From NCBI GenBank assembly GCA_021397835.1, contig JAJFZO010000566.1:2914001-2978000 (forward strand): a stretch of 64,000 nucleotides of DNA. Direction: 5' to 3'. Shown here one piece after another: positions 21,541-40,821 of this stretch (positions are counted from its first letter, which is position 1; each line of letters starts with the position of its first letter). The notes under the pieces were generated by a model. It was not told the DNA's origin. It ran no database searches and saw nothing but the letters and a program-made list of their open reading frames with translations. A program made the position numbers and the translations under genes. Source of the DNA: Moringa oleifera (Eukaryota; Streptophyta; Magnoliopsida; Brassicales; Moringaceae).

Positions 21541-24500
21541 GTTCAAGGAGCTGTCTCACAATTGGTCCCCATATGCTCTTGCGATTTAGCTGGCAGGAAC
21601 TCGAAGATTTTATGGCAAAGTTTGGATTTTTGTGAGATTGCTTTGGCAAATTACAGTGATCCTTATTAATTATCCTGTCATCAATTTACAGGTCTATACA
21701 AGCAACAAATTCTGGGTATGTAACAACTTGTACTCTAGTGAGATTTTATTAATTTAGTAGATTTACACAATCAATATTGACATAAGAGTGAACTCATTCG
21801 GCAAAAGCAAAATGTGAAGTGAAGTAAACCAGTTAAATCAGATCGATGAAACATTAATGATTTGGTCAAGTCGAACTAACCTCCTTCAAGAATCATCCTC
21901 TCATAATTTCGCACTCCGCGCAACTAAAAGTCAAAGAAAATTTTAAATTAACATCTGAGAATCGAAGATAGGGCTCCATGAAGCTAATTCACATCAAAGA
22001 GACAGATATTTTTCATTTTCTCTTTTTAATGAAAGGAAACAATTGATTTAAGTGTCCGAAACTTTGGCTCCTAACCTCCAATACTTTAAACTCTGTTAAT
22101 TTAAGTTAAAACTGGCTTTTGTTATATTGTAGATGCACTGTTACATGAATCCTTTAATTTTTGCTTCTGCCACGGAAGTTTTTCTTCCATTTGATTTAGA
22201 GGACATCTTCTTAGAACTTTCATTCCAGTGGATTATGCTTAGCCATGGGGACAAAAAGGATATATGCATACAGAAGGTCATCATCTTGAATATCACATGC
22301 AGTGTCAAAAATAAGGTTTCCAACTCTTTGTTTTAGTCTTTTATTGACTAAATTCCCATCTTCACTATAGTACTGTTTCTCTAATATCGAAAGTCAGTCC
22401 ATCACTTGCAGGCAAATGTTCTCGGTCCTTCCCCAAATTCAAACATCAAAACAACTTAAAAAAAAAAACCTAAAAACCCTGAATAACTAAACCAATATAA
22501 AGACCCCAAACCATTTTTCCCCTTAAGTTCCTTTTGGTATTTGATCTTACAGCAAATTACTCCCTCAGTTTCAAAATTATTATATATATACTACAGGGAT
22601 TTAGAGTGTAACCATGAACTTTTAATTCTTTCATTTTATGATATCAATCCAGAATGACCAATCGTACAGTACTATTGCAATGCAACACAAAACTCAATAT
22701 TGTTTAGAAAAATGCATAACTTTTTTTTTGGTGATATATTTGGAAGCAACAAGTAGAAGTGTCAATTTTTCTCGTCAAGTAAGGAGATGGGGGACTATAG
22801 ATGGGGATGGGCTTGGGTTCAGGGATTCCTCGAGTTTTTTTAACGAGAACGAGATGACACCAGAGATTATGTTCCTTACTTAGTTTTTATATCTGAACTT
22901 GCATTCTGTTTAATTATATGTATATATAAGTCAAACTCCAAAATTAAATTGAAATCCTTAAATTTAATTTAAACTCAATCCAGATTTGAATTTATTTGAT
23001 ATCAAATTTAAATAAAAATAAAAATAAAAATAAAAATACATTTATGTTTATTTAATTAATTTTAATACATTTTTTTACAAAATTAATTTAATATTTTTAA
23101 AAATATATAAAAATAAAATAAGATAGAGGATATGCATTTTTGCTAAACCCATTCCTGAAGGGGGATTCCTTATCTCTGTCCTGTTTTTGTTGAACAAGGA
23201 ATAGGGCGAAGATGAAAAATACATTTACAAATGGAAACTGGGATCGAATATGCATCCACTCTACAATTACTTTCTTAATCTTGATTTCACTAAGAACAAT
23301 CTGTTGCAAGGATTTTAAAGAAAACTAAGAACAACCAAAAATATTTTGTAATGAATTCATAAACACTTAATTTCATCCAAATTGATTTAAAGTATATTTT
23401 ACAACTATTATTAGGTTTAACAAAAAATAAAAAATATATAAATACATAAATATATATTTCCTTTTTAAAAAAACCAAAATCATGAAAAAAAATCAAAAAC
23501 CAAGAAAAAAAAAACTGAAGTCTTCATTAACCAAGCTGTAAGGCTTCAATTGGTTCATGAAACAAGAATGATCTTCAAAATAGCACTACAAAAAGGCAAC
23601 TTCTGCTCTGAATCCAACTCCTTTGGTGGGTCATTTGTCAACAATCTCCACCTTAACCCAACAAAGTTAACATAATGCGAGCTTAATTAGCTAGCTGCAT
23701 CAAAGAGCAAGCACATAAAGATCTCATTTTATCCATATCTCCAGTGAAGTCAAAATCAACATATTCTATGATACTTTGCTACATTTCTTTTAATTTCTCA
23801 TAAACCAAGCCACAATTCTTTGTCTAGATAGTTGTTGCGCATATGAGAAGCCGCTTCCTCGAATATTGCCAATGTTCTCTTCATGAATTAGCTAATGTCT
23901 TATGTTCTTTTACTACCCTCTCAGATGTTAAATAAGAGATCTATGCTTACCTCAAATTTAAGTATTTTTCAATGTGTTATAAGGTTTGAGATTCACACTA
24001 CCTTGAAGTTCTACATCTCTTGTTAATGTCTGTCAACTCTCACTAATTAATCCAGTTATCTTGTGTTATCTCACTAATTGCCGAGATGGGTATCACTAAC
24101 AAGAAAGACTATGTTGTGCAGCTTTTATGGTCTATCCTTTCTAGGGTAAACTGGGCAACCCAGGGCACACAACTCAGTTTCGGATTTTCAAATTCAAGTT
24201 ATGCAAATGAATTACTGCTCTTTCCATTGTTCATCCAAAGAGAAAATATCAAACTCCAAATATACAGATGATCACAATGTGTGCTGTTGGGTCAACAAAA
24301 CATGATTTTGTTAATTTCTTGTGTTCACACCCTATAGAGCTATATATGTTTCTTGTCAAAATACTTCAAGTTTTTGTCAATCTTGTCGAATTGGAAATTG
24401 AATAAGTTGTTCATCGCTTCTGATGTTGATAGAGAGTACATGTGTTAACTAGTAATCAATGTCATCTTTTTGGTTTCTTAATAGGGAAATGAGAGTTAAC

Positions 24501-29472: not shown

Positions 29473-29883
29473 ATGGATTCAAAGAGTTCTTTATCAACCG
29501 TTCTCTTCCTCTCCATCAACCTTCTCTTTTTTGCCTTTGTAAGTGGCTGCAACACTTGCGTTCAGCCCAAGCCAACCCCAACCCCAAACCCGAACCCTAT
29601 ACCTAACCCCTCCCCTTCAAGGACTAGCTGCCCAAGAGATGCCCTGAAGTTGGGGGTCTGTGCCCACTTGCTCAATGGCGCAGTGGGTGCAGTTGTTGGG
29701 AACCCACCAGACCACCCTTGCTGCTCAGTGCTACAAGGGCTTCTTGATCTTGAAGCCGCTGTGTGCCTCTGCACAGCCATTAAAGCCAACATTCTTGGCA
29801 TTAACATCAACATCCCTATTTCACTGAGCTTGCTTATCAACACCTGTGGCAAGAATCTTCCTTCTGACTTCATTTGTGCCTAA
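29473..29883 (+). CDS. DC2.15-type hybrid proline-rich protein, 136 aa
   Basis: The start at 29473 ([20 protein letters not shown]) is preferred over the in-frame ATG 36 bp upstream, because it puts the hydrophobic signal core at the same place as in its paralogues. Signal peptide 1-25; CNTC near the cleavage site; a Pro/Asn/Thr linker (31-50, [17 protein letters not shown]); eight-cysteine domain with Cys53, 63, 83, 84, 98, 100, 125 and 135. There is no intron. Its domain ([20 protein letters not shown]) is closest to those at 6616 and 10263, although two genes of other types and two retrotransposons lie between. It is likely a wall or membrane-surface protein; ligand unknown. Confidence 0.92.
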
Positions 29884-30220: not shown

Positions 30221-31049
30221 TATAACGCTGTATCAAATGGGCTCGTGACACTAGCTCTTGATCAAAGCTTAATATTTAATGTCTTTGTTACATTTAACAA
30301 GATGTAGCAATTCACTTAGATAAAGGCTGAGATCTCATGCTAATACTAAGGAAAGATTAAGCCACTAATATTATCAAAGCCTAAACTTAAGAGATAAGTA
30401 CTCAACTATTAGCTTATGCTTACATTATACTCTTAATTATATTTCATGTCAAGAGAATAGTTGAAAAAACAATTAACCGTGAAACTTTTCATCATGAGAA
30501 GATCAAGGAGGTTTTGTTATTATTTTTTTAAGCTCTAATAGAACTTACAAATTAATATTTGTTTAAGTTCAATAGAACAAGGAGCTTGGATGCTTCATTT
30601 CTTGGCAATTTTCCCTATAAAATTGCTGTATTATATCTGCCTGGCTAGATGGTATGAATTCAAACTAACTATTGCAGCTCTGCAACTGATGAAGCCAACC
30701 GGAATAATTTTATTTATTTTTAATTAGTATGGAAGAGCATTATAGCTTAGTCTATAGCCTTTGTGCATGTATATAATATATATTTCAGATCAAATTAGTG
30801 TACGATTTCCTCTATTTTGTTTAGAACCCGTGAAACTTTAATGCAAGTTGCTAATTAAGAATAGTTTTTTTACTGAAATCGAGAAGAGAATTCTGTGCAA
30901 CATGCAATACTAATATAGATATATATTGAAATTTGATTAAAAAAAGCCAGTATTACTTCTGATGCCTGTTGGCTCATTTGGTACAAGGTTTAACAGAGAG
31001 ACATAGCGAGATATTTGAAATAATAAAGGAAAATAAAAAATATAAAAAT
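30221..31049. other. Gene-free AT-rich spacer
   Basis: No gene or recognisable repeat was seen. Confidence 0.4.
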
Positions 31050-31572
31050 TACATAAAATTTTAATATTTATCTAGATTATTGATTAAACTCTCATATTTA
31101 AATGTGATAAATCCAATTTTAATATATCAATTTAGTTTAAATTAAATCTTAATTAACTTAAATGATATAAAAAAATTAGAATATTTTTGTTATTAAAATA
31201 ACTCAAAAATAATTCAAATAAATTTTTCGCTCCATTTTGGGTTCATCTTCAAACATATCTGAATAATTTTTTTATAAAATATTTATTTTTTGTAATTTTT
31301 TTAAAGATTAATAATGTAAATTTTTTTAAATCTATTTTCAGTACTCATAAAATTATAAACTTTTTGTCACGGTAGGTTGAATATTTTTTTATACATGTGA
31401 AAATTTTTAAATTAAAGTCCATTGTATAAGATTTTTAATTTGAATATCTTTAATTTTTACATTTTTTGATAAAATTTAATTTAGTCTAAATTGATAAATT
31501 AAGTTAGATTTGTCACTTTTCAAATATAAAAATTTGATTAGCAACATAGAGTAAATATAAAAGTTTTATAAG
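31050..31572 (-). mobile_element. AT-rich foldback/MITE-like element, copy 1
   Basis: Two arms of roughly 100 bp (31050-31148 and 31473-31572) are imperfect reverse complements of each other. For example, CTAAATTGATAAATTAA in the right arm matches the complement of the left arm's TTAATATATCAATTTAG with one mismatch. The centre carries GAGTACTGAAAATA on the minus strand, which recurs in the element at 62901-63398. It has no coding capacity. The minus strand is given relative to that second copy. Exact termini and target duplications are not resolved. Confidence 0.6.
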
Positions 31573-32433
31573 ACCTCAACCTTAAAAAAGTCATGTAATA
31601 AATTTGTTTTTAAATGTAATCTTTATATATTAATTAATTAATTTAACTTTCACATTTAAACTTTAAATTTAAAAATAAAAAATCAAAATTTTTTTTAAAA
31701 AAATTAAATAAAAAACCACCATTTTTGAAGGAAAAATAAAAGTTAAAAACAATGCACATAAATTATAAAAAGCTAAAAGAAATTCTCTGTTTTCCTTTCT
31801 TCTTAATCTCTTTCTCTCTCATTTGCATTTTGTCATTCTCTTTTTCTCTTTTTTTTCATTTTTAAATTAGTATCAAAATTTTTAAAAATTTTAAAATTGG
31901 TTTCAATCGAAAATTAAATAAATTAATAAAACATTATTTATATTAAAAACAAACTTATTATAAATTATTTTTATATTTATATTTATTTTATTTTTTCCTT
32001 TTGGACTTTAGATGGAGATGATGGATCGCAGTAGATGGGCTGCCATACGCTATACTTTCTCAATTTTCATGGACTTCTAATGGGCTTCTGATCCTATGGG
32101 CCTGCCTCGTATAACAATAGAAGTACCTATGAAGATAAGTTGAACATTAATTAATTACCAACACAATTATCCAAAATAGCTCAAAGATATTGGGAACTAA
32201 ATCTTGAATTTATTATTAATTTCAACATTCTAAATTATATAATTTTCTAAATTTAATGGGTATATTTTTATCTACATCGTGTGCATATACAAGTATTAAT
32301 CCAATAAATTACTTTTAACAAATTAATTTTTTTTCTTGAAAAAAAAAAATTGGAGACCCTTCTTACTCGTCAAGAGGTAAGCACACCCGAAACGGAAAGA
32401 ACAAAAAACATAAATCAAATGTTGACAGACACC
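31573..32433. other. Gene-free spacer before the interspersed repeat set
   Basis: AT-rich until about 31980, then of more normal composition. No gene was seen. Confidence 0.4.
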
Positions 32434-32796
32434 GTGAAGCGAAAACTCGCAATTGTTTGCAAAGATAACTTATCTTCTGTAAAAAACAATTGCATGTGAA
32501 GTGAAAACTCGACCGATATTTTCTCATTATACAAACACTTAATTATGTTCCTCAAGCGTCAATCTTTTACTCAACATGGCATGTGAAGTGAAAACTCGAT
32601 TTCTCATCACTTCTTTCCTTTTCTTCTTCTCTTTTTATTTGTTTTCCTTTTATATGACCACAATCAATATATTTTTCTCTTGTTTATAGAACAAATGTGA
32701 AGTGAAAACTCGAGTACTAAGCACTAATTATACTATCATTTATCTTCTTAATTAAAGCTTCTATTTTTTATTATTGCATGTGAAGTGAAAACTCGA
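32434..32796 (+). repeat. Five interspersed short direct repeats with unique spacers
   Basis: Core GTGAAGTGAAAACTCGA occurs perfectly at 32496-32512, 32583-32599, 32697-32713 and 32780-32796, with a two-mismatch copy (GTGAAGCGAAAACTCGC) at 32434-32450. Three perfect copies also share the preceding GCAT, giving a 21-nt unit; the 32697 copy has AAAT there. Start-to-start distances are 62, 87, 114 and 83 bp; spacers are unrelated and pyrimidine- or AT-rich. There are no nearby cas-like genes and the spacing is irregular, so this is not a CRISPR array. Possible meanings are a homotypic factor-binding cluster, a small-RNA target array, a minisatellite remnant or an assembly artefact. No other copy with the full core was seen in the window. 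Confidence 0.85.
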
Positions 32797-35700
32797 GTGT
32801 TTAATCTTTCCCGTGATTAAGATTTATAAACCATATCATTTTCTTACCTTAGTTTTATATTTTAGATATATATACACGCTATGCTTATCACATTCTCTAT
32901 AGTGTGATTAAATTTTCTCAAGGAAAGCCAATCTCCTTTTTCCGAGTTCATGCATTCCACTTTCGAGTCGGTTCTATGCCACTTTGCCACGTACCCATAT
33001 GATTAGCATTAAACCTATATGATTATTGCAACTAAAAGTCCACATTTTTCATCTTCTTAATTAAAACACGCTTTTGAAAAGAATCAAAGTGGTTGACTAT
33101 TAGATCCCTCTCCGATAGCTTTGATTATGCATACAGATCATGTGGTGGCCTTTTGATTCTTGTTAACCACTTCCCCAGTTAATAACTTCCCTTAGTTATA
33201 CCATCCTTCTCCATTATATATCATTGACCTCTAATTCAATACTACTTTCTTTTGAAAAAAAATTGCATCCTGATTTACTTGATTCCTCAATCCAAACTTC
33301 GGAGAATGATTTCTACTGATCTAATTTGTATTGATCTTTTTATAAACGTTAATATTTAAAAAAAATTATTAAAAAAACTTTTTTACAAAAATTCATGTAA
33401 ATCAACTTCCTTTTCTTTTCCAATTTTGATTATTTGTAACGGAAGATTCACGGAATCACAGCCTGATTGATTTAGTTTCTAAACCACTAAAATAGTCCAA
33501 AATGGTTGCTTATTTTCTCATTCCATACTTATATTTGATTATGCATAGTCAAGATCTCTTTTGCCCATATTTATTTTGTCGTTTATACTTTAGGAATAAA
33601 GCCGATGTATATTCTTCCAGTTACCCTCTTGTCCCTAACTGTTGCTCGATAATTCTCCTTTAGAAAATGTACTTTTGTCAAATCTTCGTTCCAATTTGAT
33701 TTCTCCGTCTCAAAAATAGTATGCTAACTCGTAAACAAAAAATTCTTAAAAATGGTAATTTGAGATTAATATTAACTTAATTCTGTTCTTGCAGTTTCTT
33801 CACGACTAAGATCTAAAAGCTTTTGCAAAAATATAATAATTAGTAAATAAATTGAATCACTAGTTCTTTATATGTAGCATTAAATACTTTTTTTTTTTGA
33901 AGAATTAATTTAGGGTAATGTCTATAGAAATCAACGGTTCCTACCCTAAGGAGGATATATAAGCAAGTGATGAAGATCATCCATTTTAACATGTTAAGAA
34001 CATCAATCTGCTATAGCTAGAATCTCCACATCAGGAATGACAACGCAAAATTGAGGTCTAATTTTATGCGTGGCATATGATGCAATGTTGGATTAAGCCG
34101 ACTGACCCTTTTGAGCTTTTTTAATTTTATTAAATATAGCATATTTTATATATATTCTTTAGGGAATTGAATTATCTAATTACTCGATCAATCTCTTCTT
34201 AAGCTCATTTTATTTCTATTAATTTTGATGATCTCATTCTTTGACTTAGAAGAGAGTTCACGCCGTCCATACATTAGCTTCCATGTACACCACACAGGTT
34301 GTCAAATCAAACACCATACACAAATCAATACAGATAAAACCTATACTATAGAGAAGAACCCTAATTTTCTTTTTTTAGTATCTTAATTAATAATACAATA
34401 TAAGGTTAAAAAACCCACTAATAGTATCTCAATTACACTTGGATTACTCTCTCTCCTCTATTATTAGCAATCTTTTAATGAGAAAGTCAGCATAAATGAT
34501 TAAATTATCTCATTTTAGCTCAATTAAACCACTATGATTGAGCCATTTGTCATGTACTCACCTTGGTCAACTGGCTTTTGAGGTATCTGAAGGAATACTC
34601 ACAAGAATTTAATATGATCGATACCATCTTCTCTCATGATTCAATTAGAATATCCGTTGTCGACCCTAAGAGAATAAATAACACGGTTATAAGTGACCTT
34701 TTAGAGCTCTATGTATCCAAAAATAAATCGACGAAAGGTCGGATTTGCGATGCAATCGTCATCGCTTAATCCAATACTCATGTCTTTATTATCTTTCATC
34801 GGAGAATTTACATCAAGCTTGATATCAATATCATCATTTAAAAAGAGAAGAGATGTCATTTAGCTACAAGAGATTATCGAAAAAAATGAATAAATTATTT
34901 CTCTTTAGAGTTCCTCGGATGTAAAAGAAGAACCGAAGTACTAAAAATAAATATTCATACACCGACATACATTGCTTGGCTCTTGCGGTGATTATATGGC
35001 TATGTAATTGCTTATGAGAAGGCAATTCATTTATCAAATGATTAGCGTATACAATTATAATTAATTTTGTGAACTCTTATAGTTGAAAAAGGAAAATAAA
35101 ATATTTTTTCATTATTTGAACTCCAATTGGACCGACGAATGAGGAAAGATTCAAGCTATACTTTTTAAAAAATTTCATGTTATTTTAATTCTCTTAAATT
35201 TGATAGTCAACACCTAAAGAGTAATCGGTGATCTATTTGTTCTTTTGGAAAGGCAAAAATGGATGGTTTGAATTAAGTCCAATAAGCCATTATATAGAAT
35301 CTTCGGGTACCAATGGGGTCACTTCCTCTCAAGAGTCATTTCTAACATCGATTCTGATCCAACCATTCAATCAAGAAACCAATAAAAATAATGTACATAT
35401 ATGATATATGACTTCTTTTGATTTCAAGCTTAGTAATTCTTTCGTTTTCGATTCTTAGCCGACCATTTTTTTTTTAATTCTTCAAAAAAGAAAAACAAGT
35501 GTTGTACCTAATTAAATATGTTATTTGATAGAAAAGACTTCAATCTTTTTCATATTTACTCGTAATAAGATAATTAAGATTCATATTGATAAAATTAGTA
35601 ATTCTAAGAATAGCAAAAATTAATGGTTTTGAACATTTTTTGTAAACCCTAATTCATACGGGTCAAAAAAAATTGCCCCATAAATCGTGAAATTCACAGA

Positions 35701-36845
35701 CAAAAACGTAAAAGAAAAGAAAAGATTCAAAAGATGGGTTTCATGCATATTTGATGTTAATTTCCAATTATCCACAAAAAGAAGAAGGAAAGATTTCTCG
35801 GACAACCTTTCAGGGCACTAAGTGGATTCTCCTTTACAAAGTGGAATCTTGAATATTTGTCAACTGATGATATTTACTCATATAGAAAGGGATCGAGATC
35901 ACAAGCATGGCAGCCGTTCATAGTTGCGTTGAAGTTTCTTCTTCTTTGAGTGTTACATATGATGGATCCATGTAATTTGGTCGATTTGCATTAAATAATA
36001 AATAACTTAGACATATAGCCCACAGGACAAATTATTCCAATGGGATCTCTATATTAGTCATCACGTGAGTTTGGACCACAAAACCGTCGTTAACGTAAAA
36101 ATTAGAATGAGGATGAGATATCCACCCGTTACGATCTGATCAAAGTGACAATCTGATTATCTTGATCAAACTCTGAATCTCGATTTCAATGGTATCCCAA
36201 AGAAAAGAGAAATTAGAATTCAAAATTTAATTACACACCAGACATGGCCTGACAACTTTGAATCATTGATACCAAATTATTTCCAATCTGGAAAGAATTT
36301 TTGGACATTTCTTGCATTTGTATCAATAGATGGTTCGTTTTTCCAATTGCTCTTAATTAAAATCTTACCAAGTTTGAAAAAAATGTCCCCATTAATTGGA
36401 TATCATACAGCATGCCAAGTGGTTTGTGTTGCGCATTATGAAGTGAAAACAGATAATCCATTTTTTTTTTCATGTTTAAATCATGTGTTTAGTAGATTAA
36501 TTATTGGAGTTGTTAATTAATCTGATTAATTAAAATTTAAGCTTGCAATTACGACGTTGAGATTCAATTATAATGACACGTATCGGCTAATCAATCAATG
36601 AGCTCAAAAAGGGAAAAGAAAGGCATAAATTAAGAGAGGTAGTAGTGAAAACGTGTTGTTTAACCTAAGATTTTTGTCGTAAACCAAACCTGAGAACTCA
36701 ACCATGGTTCCAACCGAAGAGGAAGTGAGCAATTATTTTGTCTTTATTTTATATTTCTTCCCCAATCAAACAAAGCTAACAGGTGGCACTTCGTTTTCCA
36801 TCACCTTTATCTCTCCTCAACATGAGGTTCTCTTTTGGTTTCCAA
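32797..36845. other. Gene-free interval upstream of the NPF gene
   Basis: No gene is supported. 32900-33300 and 33920-34000 have promoter-like composition (for example GGATATATAAGC near 33952) but no open frame follows. The short frame at 34563-34769 begins at TTG and matches no family I know. TGAAGTGAAAAC at 36439-36450 matches 12 nt of the repeat set above. Confidence 0.4.
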
Positions 36846-36853
36846 TATAAATA
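36846..36853 (+). promoter_or_regulatory. TATA box of the NPF transporter gene
   Basis: TATAAATA, 213 bp before the ATG. The predicted leader of about 180 nt includes a pyrimidine tract (CTTCTTCTTCTTCTCC, then CT repeats) at 36902-36930, typical of plant 5' leaders. Confidence 0.65.
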
Positions 36854-37058
36854 CTCCACTAGCCCCGCCATTCATTTGTGCCACTTGCTTGTCTTCCGTC
36901 TCTTCTTCTTCTTCTCCTCTCTCTCTCTGTTCCTCTCTGTGTGTGTTTGTTTGTTCGGAAAGACAAATTAAACCGGAGGAAGAAAGCTTTTTTCCCGATA
37001 AAACCCACGAAGGAAAGTATATACCGGGCTAGTTGGCTCTGTGTTTGATCTGGAGAAA

Positions 37059-40000
37059 ATGGCACTCCCTATAACACAAGGAAAGACTATCCCTGATGCC
37101 TGGGACTACAAGGGCCGCCCTGCCGAGCTGGGAAAGACTGGTGGCTGGACCAGCTCCGCCATGATTCTAGGTCCTTTTTTCCGGCCACTACAACTTTCAA
37201 GCTCTGCTCATGTTTTAGCTTCATCTACTTCTCTCTCACATGGGTTTTTCTACTTTCTTCTGTACGTGTCTCAGGTGTTGAAGCTATAGAGAGGTTGACA
37301 ACGTTAGGCATTGTCGTCAATCTGGTGACGTACTTGACTGGTACCATGCATTTGGGCAATGCTGCTTCTGCAACTATCGTCACCAACTTCCTCGGCAGCA
37401 CTTTCATGCTTTGCTTGCTCGGTGGCTTCCTCGCAGACACTTTCCTCGGCCGGTGAGCACTTCTTAATCTTGCCGGAATATGCATATCTTAGTCTCTATT
37501 GTTGGTCTCTTAAGTTTCATTTCCTTGACTGTGCTTTTGTTCCTTCCTCGATCTTTTCACAGGTACCTCACCATCGGCATCTTTGCCACCATTGAAGCTC
37601 TGGTAAACCTCTGATGCAGTCATTTTCTTCTTAACCCAAAAGAAAAAGGAAGCATAGAAAATGAAATAAAATGAATTGGATCACTTTGGTATGACATGTG
37701 CCACTCCTTACGGCACGCACCAATCATTAATTTCTTTCATTAATCCTGTTTATTATGATTAAATATTCTGATGTTTTTCGTTTCTTAGTGATGCATGAAG
37801 GTGACCCAAAATTGAAATTAATCTGTCTTCTCCCTGTTTGTTGGTGATTAGGGTATCACAATCTTGACTATCTCAACAATAATCCCAAGCCTAAGGCCTC
37901 CCAAATGTAACATGGAAGAAGAGTCCTCTTGCATCCCCGCAAGTGGCATGCAACTCACAGTACTCTACATGGCATTGTACATAACAGCCCTCGGAACCGG
38001 CGGCCTGAAATCCAGCGTCTCCGGCTTCGCCTCCGACCAGTTCGACGAGTCAGACCAGGAGGAAAGATCCCTGATGAGCAACTTCTTCAACTGGTTCTTC
38101 TTCTTAATCAACATAGGCTCACTGGGTGCCGTGACAATCCTTGTATACATCCAAGACAACCTCGGACGTGAGTGGGGGTACGGCATCTGCGCCTGTGCTA
38201 TCGTGCTGGGCATCGCCGTTTTCCTCTCTGGCACCAGACGGTACCGGTTCAAGAAACTGGTCGGCAGCCCTTTGACGCAGATCGCCGCCGTGTTCGTCGC
38301 TGCTTGGAGGAAGAGGCATCTTCGTTTACCATCTGACCCTTCTTTACTCTTTAACATCGACGACATCGTTGAAGCCGAAGGAGGGAAGAAGAAGAAGCAA
38401 AAATTGCCCCACTCAAAGCAGTTCCGGTTAGTCTCTTCCCTAACCATATACCGTCATTTTATTTCCAAACAAGTTCCCCACTTATCTGTAATTACTATTA
38501 AAAATAAGTGCTTTTCAAAGAATTCGAATATCCTACTCCTCTTTTTTCTGTAGATGGTCAAACAGTGGGTAAAGAAAAGTAAACATTTTCACTTGGAAAA
38601 GGACCATATAATTAAAAAATTAATTATAATAAATAGTCACAGTGATTATATATACTACAGGAAATAAATCATGCACAAATTAGTTTAATTAAAGATGACC
38701 ATATAATTCCCTTTTTGATTAACTATATTAATCAAAGTAAGAAATTATATTTCTTGATCGTGTTCATCCTCTTGTACAATTCATGAATCTAATTTTTGTG
38801 ACAAATATTAGGGTAGGTTGGCAGTCTGTGGGCTTATCTTCTAGTGGACCGACCCTAATATACACACACATAATATATATATATATATATATACATATAT
38901 ATAATTGATAATTATTGGCCATATATAGAAAGAGACAAACCTTTAATTGTCGACAATTAGGACAACCAAATTCTTTTGGCCAAGTTGGTGCTTCCTTGCA
39001 ACTTAAAATTTTAATTTAATTATTATTAGAGACCGTCCATGTGCTTGCTTGGGCGATTTATTAGAATATATAAATTTGAACAAATATATCTTTAGTACCA
39101 CATAAGAGCAAGCTGTTTGATCTTATGGTATCATGATACGCATGTTTTTAATACAAAAATGATCATGCATGTATCTTTAACATTCTCTCAATCAAGATCG
39201 TGATCATGTGGACATAACCTAATTAAATCTTATATGATCTTTGCATCACAAATAAAATTAAAAATAAAAATCTTTGAGTTATGATCTCAGAAAACTGGAA
39301 TCTGGGTTGGGATTCCGGTAATAGATACTCTATATTCTCTTACAGTTTTTGTCACATTTTTATCTTAATATATGATACCGAGATTTATCTGTCTGCTTAG
39401 TTGTTTGATTAGTTAATTAAGAAGAGAGAACATGATAATTAAGTTAACGTTAGATTGAATTAACCAAAGTTAATCACCAATTATCGAAAGAATCAACGGA
39501 GATTAATGAAGGGATCACGAGCAATTAGGACAGGTTGTCGTTGTCCTAATTGGTGGAACCTCACACTTCTTGTCTTAACCATCCACTTGTGGACACCTAC
39601 CTTCCTTAGCTAATTCACTCGGAGACATAGTCTACTTCACTTGGAAAACTACGTCTTAAAGTCTTTTCATCGGGATTGATACCCATAGCTATCGATTTCA
39701 AAATCACGAGAAACAAACAGAAAATATGGTATGATGAACCAATAATGTTGTCTGAATTCTTCCTTTGGTGGGTCTAGAGGTGCATGCATATGTGAGCTAT
39801 AGTCTGATACCAATCTCAGATGCATGAAACTTATAGAACCGCGCAACAATGACGTTTCTTCCGACACTTTCTAAACAAATTAAGACTAATTATTTGGGTT
39901 TTCTGATGTTGATCCATGTTGTTGATTATTTTTTCTTGCAGTTTCTTGGACAAGGCGGCCATTAAGGAACAAGATCAAGTGGGTGTTGCATGTTCTGGTT

Positions 40001-40821
40001 TGGTGATTAACAAGTGGACACTATCAACCCTAACGGATGTTGAAGAAGTGAAATTGGTGATTAGAATGTTACCAATTTGGGCGACTACTATAATGTTTTG
40101 GACTATCTATGCCCAAATGACAACTTTCTCTGTGTCACAAGCCACCACCATGGACCGTCACATAGGCAAATCGTTTGAAATTCCTCCGGCATCTTTAACA
40201 GTCTTCTTTGTCGGAAGCATCCTCTTGACTGTCCCGGTGTACGACCGGATAATTGCTCCGGTGGCAAGAAAAGTGCTCAAGAACCCACAAGCACTCACCC
40301 CATTGCAGCGCATGGGGGTTGGTCTTGTCCTTTCGATTATAGCAATGGTAGCCGCAGCTCTCACTGAAGTGAAGCGACTGAAGGTGGCAAGGTCACACGG
40401 GCTGTCGGCAGATCCCGCCGCTGAGATCCCATTGAGTGTTTTCTGGCTGATCCCACAGTTCCTCTTCGTCGGATCCGGTGAGGCCTTTACCTACATAGGA
40501 CAGCTTGATTTCTTCCTCAAGGAGTGCCCTAAAGGGATGAAAACGATGAGCACAGGGCTGTTTTTGAGCACTCTCTCGCTAGGGTTTTTCTTCAGCTCTC
40601 TGTTGGTCACTATAGTTCACAAGGTGACCGGCCATACTCATCCATGGCTGGCAGACAATCTCAACCAAGGCAAGCTTTACGACTTCTACTGGCTGCTGGC
40701 GATCCTCAGCGCCCTGAACTTAGCCATGTTCTTGGTCTGTGCTAAGTGGTACGTGTACAAGGAGAAGAGGCTCGCCGACCAAGGAATTGAGCTGGAGGAA
40801 CAAGACATTGCTTGCCATTGA
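37059..40821 (+). CDS. NPF6: NPF6-type (NRT1.1/NPF6.3-like) anion transporter, 594 aa
   Basis: Proton-coupled nitrate/chloride transporter of the NRT1/PTR family, expected in the plasma membrane with 12 membrane helices. Five exons join in phase: 37059-37170, 37275-37452, 37563-37602, 37852-38426 and 39942-40821, all with GT..AG introns, giving 594 residues (Arabidopsis NRT1.1 has 590). The N-terminal DAWDYKGRPA and C-terminal KWYVYKEKRLA..GIEL closely match NRT1.1. Visible motifs: proton-coupling EAIER (40-44), Thr100 in GRYLTIG (equivalent to the CIPK23-phosphorylated Thr101), Lys163 in GTGGLKSS, and Glu in GSGEAFTYIGQLDFF. The substrate-site residue equivalent to His356 is Tyr358 (TAT at 40108-40110). 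Maize work on NPF6.4/6.6 links Tyr here to chloride preference. Intron 4 is long (1515 bp) and contains retroelement-like debris. Confidence 0.93.
38427..39941 (+). other. Intron 4 of the NPF gene, enlarged by repeats
   Basis: A 1515-bp intron, far longer than the other three (104, 110 and 249 bp). It holds a TA microsatellite (38871-38903) and a stretch at about 39540-39870. On the minus strand that stretch contains TGGTATCAGAC (39812 downward), similar to a copia/TRIM primer-binding site. No LTR pair was resolved. Confidence 0.55.
38871..38903. repeat. (TA)n microsatellite in NPF intron 4
   Basis: TA repeat with one C interruption. Confidence 0.85.

What the first reader, a model, noticed from the sequence alone, without database searches (positions are those of the whole stretch)
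32434..32796. Five interspersed 17-21 nt direct repeats separated by unique spacers in a gene-free interval
Four exact and one near-exact copies of GTGAAGTGAAAACTCGA occur within 363 bp, all in the same orientation. Spacers of 45-97 nt are unrelated to each other. Sequence identity stops sharply at about 21 nt in three copies. That is too long and too exact for chance in AT-rich DNA, too irregular for a tandem satellite, and not CRISPR. The 21-nt unit length equals a plant small-RNA target site, so one hypothesis is a non-coding transcript with multiple small-RNA sites (TAS-like or target mimic). Others are a homotypic transcription-factor cluster, a decayed minisatellite, or oligonucleotide or assembly contamination.
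Basis: partly seen in the sequence, partly recalled or inferred. Interest (0 to 1): 0.75.

Follow-up and report, generated by a model that had tools for sequence, protein, structure and literature searches.

The report
One-off repeat array near nitrate-transporter gene
A plant chromosome carries five nearly identical copies of a 16-19-letter DNA word, a cluster not found elsewhere in its genome, in the gene-free stretch before a nitrate-transporter gene; it is a real oddity, probably a landing pad for a regulatory protein, but its job is unproven.

Summary
Four exact and one near-exact (2 mismatches) copies of GTGAAGTGAAAACTCGA lie in one orientation within 363 bp. The spacers are 45, 70, 97 and 66 nt. 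In the 279.5 Mb assembly the 16-mer was found only at the four exact copies, and no second cluster appeared at up to 2 mismatches. So it is not a known transposon family, a satellite or a widespread motif. The array lies between a hybrid proline-rich protein gene and an NRT1.1/NPF6.3-like nitrate-transporter gene without a close paralogue.

The small-RNA reading is weakened. The shared block is 19 nt in four copies and 16 nt in all five, there is no 21-nt register, and none of 46 partial matches elsewhere sits in a convincing miRNA-type hairpin. A decayed minisatellite is weakened too: spacers show at most a faint residual similarity, while the cores are exact.

I favour a homotypic cis-regulatory array: the word is read as DNA by a long-site binding protein, most plausibly acting on the transporter gene about 4.3 kb downstream (confidence 0.4). 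That rests on anatomy and elimination. No expression, binding or cross-species data were available. The nearest functional analogue that I found in print, the bean G564 suspensor module, is not matched.

The parts
32434..32450 (+). Array copy 1, GTGAAGCGAAAACTCGC (2 mismatches to the core)
32492..32512 (+). Array copy 2, GCATGTGAAGTGAAAACTCGA (exact; shares 24 nt, ATTGCAT+17-mer, with copy 5)
32579..32599 (+). Array copy 3, GCATGTGAAGTGAAAACTCGA (exact)
32695..32713 (+). Array copy 4, ATGTGAAGTGAAAACTCGA (exact over 19 nt; preceded by AA, not GC)
32776..32796 (+). Array copy 5, GCATGTGAAGTGAAAACTCGA (exact)
32449..32493 (.). Imperfect palindrome filling spacer 1 (GCAATTGTTT...AAACAATTGC); forms a stem in both the minimum-energy and the centroid fold of the + strand
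32020..33350 (.). Single-copy interval that contains the array; the only other genome match is a 52-nt stretch at 85% identity (window 32297-32349)
31022..31587 (.). Neighbouring high-copy repeat with inverted ends (MITE-like); ends about 850 bp before the array and does not contain it
29473..29883 (+). Upstream neighbour: hybrid proline-rich protein / 14 kDa DC2.15-like gene, last of five in the window; array starts 2.55 kb after its stop
37059..40821 (+). Downstream neighbour: NRT1.1/NPF6.3-like nitrate transporter gene; array ends about 4.26 kb before its ATG

Best explanation
The array is a homotypic cis-regulatory cluster: five copies of one long (16-19 nt) protein-binding site, all in one orientation, in the single-copy interval upstream of the NRT1.1/NPF6.3-like gene. 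Proposed working: a sequence-specific DNA-binding protein with an unusually long site (for example several zinc fingers, or a composite of two factors) occupies the copies side by side. Multiple occupancy gives a graded or cooperative enhancer or silencer effect on a neighbouring gene, most plausibly the nitrate transporter that it lies upstream of. Shown: copy number, exactness, orientation, restriction to one locus, absence of sizeable ORFs and of known RNA families. Inferred: that a protein binds, that the effect is on transcription, and which gene is the target.
For: Five copies against 0.14 expected. The core is exact in four copies while the spacers show at most faint similarity, which suggests constraint on the core or independent gain. 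Single-locus DNA, not a repeat family. No Rfam family and no sizeable ORF. The interval from 33.2 to 36.9 kb up to the transporter gene is single copy too, and that gene is the best NRT1.1-type match found. Copy starts fall close to one face of the helix at a period of 10.5 bp (R=0.82, p=0.028). Homotypic clustering of short sites is an experimentally shown feature of a plant enhancer (PMC4441743; abstract, section 13 and found passages read).
Against: Helical phasing is not significant at 10.4 bp (p=0.21) or 10.6 bp (p=0.15), nor if the period is scanned from 10.2 to 10.8 bp (p=0.17). The core is longer and more exact than an ordinary plant transcription-factor site needs (general knowledge). 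The motif is not enriched genome-wide: 42 places outside the array at up to 2 mismatches against 71 for the reversed control. Shorter matches around the flanking genes are at background level for 9- and 10-mers. All copies face one way, which a DNA-level array does not require. No binding, chromatin or expression data were available.
Confidence: 0.4

Rival explanations
1. RNA-level array: an unannotated + strand transcript (or its antisense) carries five sites for one small RNA or RNA-binding protein, acting as a sponge, target mimic or siRNA source.
For: All five copies lie in one orientation. Length and exactness suit base-pairing. Three copies share 21 nt. The + strand folds slightly better than shuffles (z -1.86, 3 of 100 shuffles as good). 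The copies are close to a 22-nt register (R=0.79), which was not tested for significance.
Against: The shared block is 19 nt in four copies and 16 nt in five, with pairwise extents of 21 and 24 nt. There is no 21-nt register (R=0.17). None of 46 genome places with partial matches lies in a convincing hairpin precursor: 18 had an arm-like stem, one of those (L077) reached z -2.25, the other 17 were at -1.31 or above. Longer folds that pair the site were tested afterwards: L048 antisense (16 of 17 bases paired) z -0.62; L049 sense z -2.27, a branched 260-nt fold and not a miRNA-type hairpin. No Rfam match. No strong miRNA-like hairpin among the 25 lowest-energy qualifying windows printed for 29.9-37.05 kb. 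The motif is not printed in the papers held.
Confidence: 0.2
2. Neutral relic: remains of an old tandem or filler-DNA event in which the copies happen to be preserved, with no function.
For: AT-rich gene-free DNA with a MITE-like element about 850 bp away. The genome contains a degenerate short-period minisatellite elsewhere (L064). Flanks and spacers show a faint excess of similarity: 4 of 26 overlapping comparisons at p 0.05 or less (upstream 2/5 and 3/5, downstream 3/4, spacers 2/4), 1.3 expected; ungapped identity reaches 0.47-0.53 in three flank pairs.
Against: Spacers are unequal in length and at most faintly alike while four cores are exact. Tandem Repeats Finder does not report the array even at score 30; it lists only a 26-nt repeat of period 13 inside spacer 3 and one repeat outside the array. 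The spacers found no second copy elsewhere in the genome as part of the 1331-base query, though short templates could be missed. No equivalent non-coding array of exact long words in the other DNA sampled.
Confidence: 0.25
3. Transposon part: subterminal transposase-binding repeats of a mobile element.
For: Clusters of short repeats occur near the ends of CACTA/hAT-type elements (recalled).
Against: The interval is single copy and the 16-mer was found only here. The nearby MITE-like family ends before the array.
Confidence: 0.05
4. Assembly or cloning artefact.
For: Reads were not available.
Against: The array lies deep inside a 9.57 Mb contig with ordinary plant genes on both sides. The exact 17-mer occurs in only 1 viral-contig stretch and 9 prokaryote-genome stretches, one site each. 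No comparison with an oligonucleotide or vector library was possible.
Confidence: 0.04

Closest known systems
G564 suspensor cis-regulatory module of Phaseolus (PMC4441743)
   Same: Non-coding plant DNA upstream of a gene, with several copies of one short element; five promoter repeats; the 10-bp element GAAAAGCGAA shares AAGCGAA with array copy 1.
   Different: There the repeat unit is about 150 bp, tandem and alignable throughout. Here only 16-21 nt are shared by most copies. The Region 2 motif is absent here (0.25 expected by density, so a weak test) and the 10-bp consensus rule (mismatches not adjacent) is not met by the repeat.
Homotypic clusters of transcription-factor sites (general)
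   Same: Several near-identical sites within a few hundred bp of non-coding DNA.
   Different: Sites here are long and exact, all face one way, and were found as a cluster only once in the genome; I know of no cognate factor and no motif library was available to search.
Plant TAS loci and endogenous target mimics such as IPS1 (recalled)
   Same: Short conserved complementary site(s) inside otherwise unconserved non-coding DNA.
   Different: Those have one or two sites for a known small RNA (recalled). Here there are five, with no convincing small-RNA source found and no 21-nt register.

Membership tests
Homotypic cis-regulatory cluster | Several copies of one motif within a few hundred bp of non-coding DNA, beyond chance | tested here: met
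   5 against 0.14 expected; no sizeable ORF or Rfam match
Homotypic cis-regulatory cluster | Motif used at other loci of the same genome | tested here: not met
   42 places outside the array at up to 2 mismatches against 71 control, none forming a second cluster
Homotypic cis-regulatory cluster | A protein binds the motif and a gene depends on it | not testable with these tools
   no binding, chromatin or expression data held
G564-type suspensor module | 10-bp motif GAAAAGCGAA with at most three non-adjacent mismatches, carried by the repeat | tested here: not met
   best windows: GTGAAGTGAA (3 mismatches, two adjacent) and, in copy 1, GTGAAGCGAA (2, adjacent); 4 sites in the 431 bp against 2.39 expected, three of them in spacer 3 and one only partly overlapping copy 4
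G564-type suspensor module | Region 2 motif | tested here: not met
   0 in 32400-32830, with 0.25 expected by the window's density
G564-type suspensor module | Fifth motif | tested here: inconclusive
   1 found against 0.62 expected
TAS locus / target mimic | Complementary small RNA encoded in the genome | tested here: not met
   46 places examined, none in a convincing hairpin precursor; small RNAs with more mismatches or non-hairpin sources are not excluded
TAS locus / target mimic | Sites in 21-nt register (phased loci) | tested here: not met
   R=0.17 at period 21
TAS locus / target mimic | Transcript over the sites | not testable with these tools
   no RNA data held
Tandem repeat / minisatellite | Head-to-tail copies with related units | tested here: not met
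   array not reported by Tandem Repeats Finder; spacers at most faintly alike, 4 of 26 comparisons at p 0.05 or less
Transposon family | Multiple genomic copies | tested here: not met
CRISPR array | Repeats with spacers of near-constant length | tested here: not met
   spacers of 45, 70, 97 and 66 nt in a plant genome (neighbouring genes)

The most novel reading that the evidence does not exclude
A natural decoy: a + strand transcript with five near-perfect sites that soak up a small RNA not encoded in the plant's own assembly, for example one delivered by a virus, parasite or symbiont. That would explain the exactness, the single orientation and the lack of a convincing source locus.
Probability: 0.05. 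Interest if true: 0.8.

Novelty: new member of a known kind. Interest (0 to 1): 0.35.

Why it matters
If it is a binding array, it offers a compact, single-locus handle on a plant DNA-binding protein with an unusually long recognition site, possibly one that controls a major nitrate sensor-transporter. If it is a small-RNA sponge, it would be a rare natural multi-site case. If neither, it is a caution that striking repeat arrays can persist without known function. The array is small enough to delete in one edit, so the question is testable.

Tried and rejected
Peptide-repeat idea: spacings of 62 and 83 are not multiples of three, and the two frames I read by eye reach stops in the spacers (read). 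Known RNA: none at gathering or relaxed threshold. Whole-array RNA fold: weak on + (z -1.86), none on - (z 0.34). miRNA-like hairpins in 29.9-37.05 kb: the 25 lowest-energy qualifying windows printed had a folding index of 0.77 or less. Partial matches near the flanking genes (12-mers at 21812 and 36439) looked enriched against permuted motifs, but 9- and 10-mers are as common in 80 kb of background; 11- and 12-mers were 3 and 2 in the window against 1 and 0 in that 80 kb, too few to use. The C627 set of seven near-matches is one tandemly duplicated unit with one site every 8.2-11.6 kb, not an array. Comparison with named plant miRNAs was from recall only, found no candidate, and is not a test. 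Helical phasing is kept only as weak support. The bacterial promoter/terminator scan is not informative for a plant. A paralogous interval was not compared: the next best matches to the transporter's last large exon are at most 63% identical. Literature listings gave only PMC4441743 as useful (abstract, section 13 and found passages read; the rest of that paper not read); the others were seen as listings only. A filler-DNA origin was considered (listing only; the idea is recalled) and disfavoured because no spacer template was found. The viral and prokaryote scans for the exact 17-mer gave 1 and 9 single sites, treated as chance; I did not inspect them further.

Dropped or partial inputs: the cluster scan covered 133,019 bases (the window plus 22 loci then held), left out 24 loci (14 overlapping the window and the ten viral/prokaryote ones) and ignored low-complexity words; the bases scanned include seven near-identical C627 loci. 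The permutation test used 80 permuted motifs, with the array replaced by N. One search listed 120 of 1639 proteins. One search scored 40 of 4816 candidates.

Full report
What is there. Five copies of GTGAAGTGAAAACTCGA, four exact and one with two mismatches, lie on the + strand at 32434, 32496, 32583, 32697 and 32780. At up to 3 mismatches there are no others in the 64 kb window; shuffles expect 0.14 and none of 100 reached five. The gaps between 17-mers are 45, 70, 97 and 66 nt. Read base by base, the shared stretch is 16 nt (one mismatch) in all five, 19 nt in the four exact copies, 21 nt in copies 2, 3 and 5, and 24 nt in copies 2 and 5. A fixed 21-nt unit is therefore not what the sequence shows. 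Tandem Repeats Finder does not report the array; at score 30 it lists only a 26-nt repeat of period 13 inside spacer 3 and one repeat outside the array.

Spacers. Local alignments of flanks (20 pairs) and spacers (6 pairs), which overlap one another, were compared with shuffles. Three flank pairs reach p 0.025-0.05 (copies 2/5 and 3/5 upstream, 3/4 downstream) and one spacer pair p 0.025 (2/4): 4 of 26 at p 0.05 or less, with 1.3 expected, uncorrected. A faint residual relationship is therefore not excluded, but it is far from the exactness of the cores. Spacer 1 is an imperfect palindrome that forms a stem in the + strand fold. Spacer 3 is 77% pyrimidine.

Genome-wide. The window lies in G000, contig C25, 2914001-2978000, in a 279.5 Mb assembly of 669 contigs. 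The exact 16-mer was found only at the four exact array copies, with 1 match for the reversed control. The 21-mer at up to 3 mismatches gives 17 places: four in the array, seven in one tandemly duplicated unit on C627, and six singles, against 2 for the reversed control. The 17-mer at up to 2 mismatches gives 47 places: five in the array and 42 outside (seven of these the C627 unit), against 71 control, and no second cluster. The interval 32020-33350 matches nothing else except one 52-nt stretch. The 33200-36900 stretch is unique. A high-copy MITE-like element occupies about 31022-31587 (4816 first-look candidates, 40 scored) and ends about 850 bp before the array.

Neighbours. Before the array lies the last of five hybrid proline-rich (DC2.15-like, Pfam Hydrophob_seed) genes of the window. 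After it lies an NRT1.1/NPF6.3-like gene, whose last large exon hits the solved NRT1.1/NPF6.3 structures at E 4e-115; in this genome the next matches to that exon, of 58 listed, are at most 63% identical. The closest relatives of the proline-rich protein 29473-29883 among the 120 of 1639 listed are from several eudicot orders, at 83% identity or below over the full length (Jatropha curcas 83%, Melia and Carica 81%) and up to 86% over part of it. The species is thus a eudicot that I could not name.

Background. In the window plus 22 loci held at the time (133,019 bases, low-complexity words ignored) the only other group of four 9-mers within 500 bp was in L035, a locus brought in by the proline-rich protein search. 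In 80 kb of further sampled DNA, 2 of 8 stretches held comparable groups of shorter words: a 75-nt repeat in L061 that looks coding and a degenerate minisatellite in L064. None held three or more 16-mers of this kind. Interspersed exact arrays of this length are thus uncommon here, although about 0.2 Mb is a small sample.

RNA reading. No Rfam match. If the array were a target of a miRNA encoded in this genome, a near-complement in a hairpin should exist. I examined 46 places: 19 (all 13 non-array places, and six) and 27; together these include all 42 non-array places. Arm-like stems appeared in 7 of 19 and 11 of 27. Only one of these 18 folded better than shuffles by more than two standard deviations (L077, z -2.25, a short-looped stem). 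Longer folds printed that pair most of the site were tested: L048 antisense, 16 of 17 bases paired, z -0.62; L049 antisense z -0.76; L051 sense z 1.63; L049 sense z -2.27, but this is a branched 260-nt fold. I judge none of them a miRNA-type precursor. The copies show no 21-nt register (R=0.17); a value of 0.79 at 22 nt was also seen and not tested. Small RNAs with more mismatches, sources outside the assembly, and RNA-binding proteins remain possible.

DNA reading. Copy starts lie close to one helical face at 10.5 bp (R=0.82, p=0.028), but p is 0.21 at 10.4, 0.15 at 10.6 and 0.17 when periods of 10.2-10.8 are scanned. Partial matches elsewhere in the window are at background level for 9- and 10-mers. 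The nearest functional analogue that I found in print is the G564 suspensor module of bean (PMC4441743; abstract, section 13 and found passages read). The repeat does not meet its rule for the 10-bp motif, the Region 2 motif is absent (0.25 expected, so a weak test), and the Fifth motif is inconclusive. The array may work like a homotypic cluster; it is not shown to be that module.

Judgement. Exact cores among spacers that are at most faintly alike argue for constraint or independent gain rather than passive decay; this is inference. I put 0.40 on a cis-regulatory binding array, 0.25 on a neutral relic, 0.20 on an RNA-level array, 0.05 on a transposon part and 0.04 on an artefact. The corrections made on checking did not change these odds. 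The motif is not in the full text of the 5.39 million papers searched (six spellings of 15 or 16 letters).

Noticed in passing
window 31022-31587: High-copy MITE-like element with inverted ends; the first look listed 4816 candidates genome-wide, and the main matches of the 40 scored align at about 74-78% identity.
   Followed up: partly
window 6613-29883: Cluster of five hybrid proline-rich / DC2.15-like genes, one on the minus strand.
   Followed up: partly
G000 C19:914175 and C583:8135; C2:6663729 and C27:3027: Pairs of matches with identical scores on different contigs (the first pair also with the same second match 1.2 kb on) suggest retained haplotigs or recent duplication in the assembly.
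   Followed up: no
G000 C627:1595645-1652236 (L015-L021): Seven tandemly duplicated units spaced 8.2-11.6 kb apart, each with one 3-mismatch copy of the 21-mer.
   Followed up: partly
L064 7200-8300 and 9200-10000: Long degenerate minisatellite with a unit of about 17 nt.
   Followed up: no
window 33120-33133 and 33534-33547: Exact 14-nt direct repeat TTTGATTATGCATA shortly after the array.
   Followed up: no
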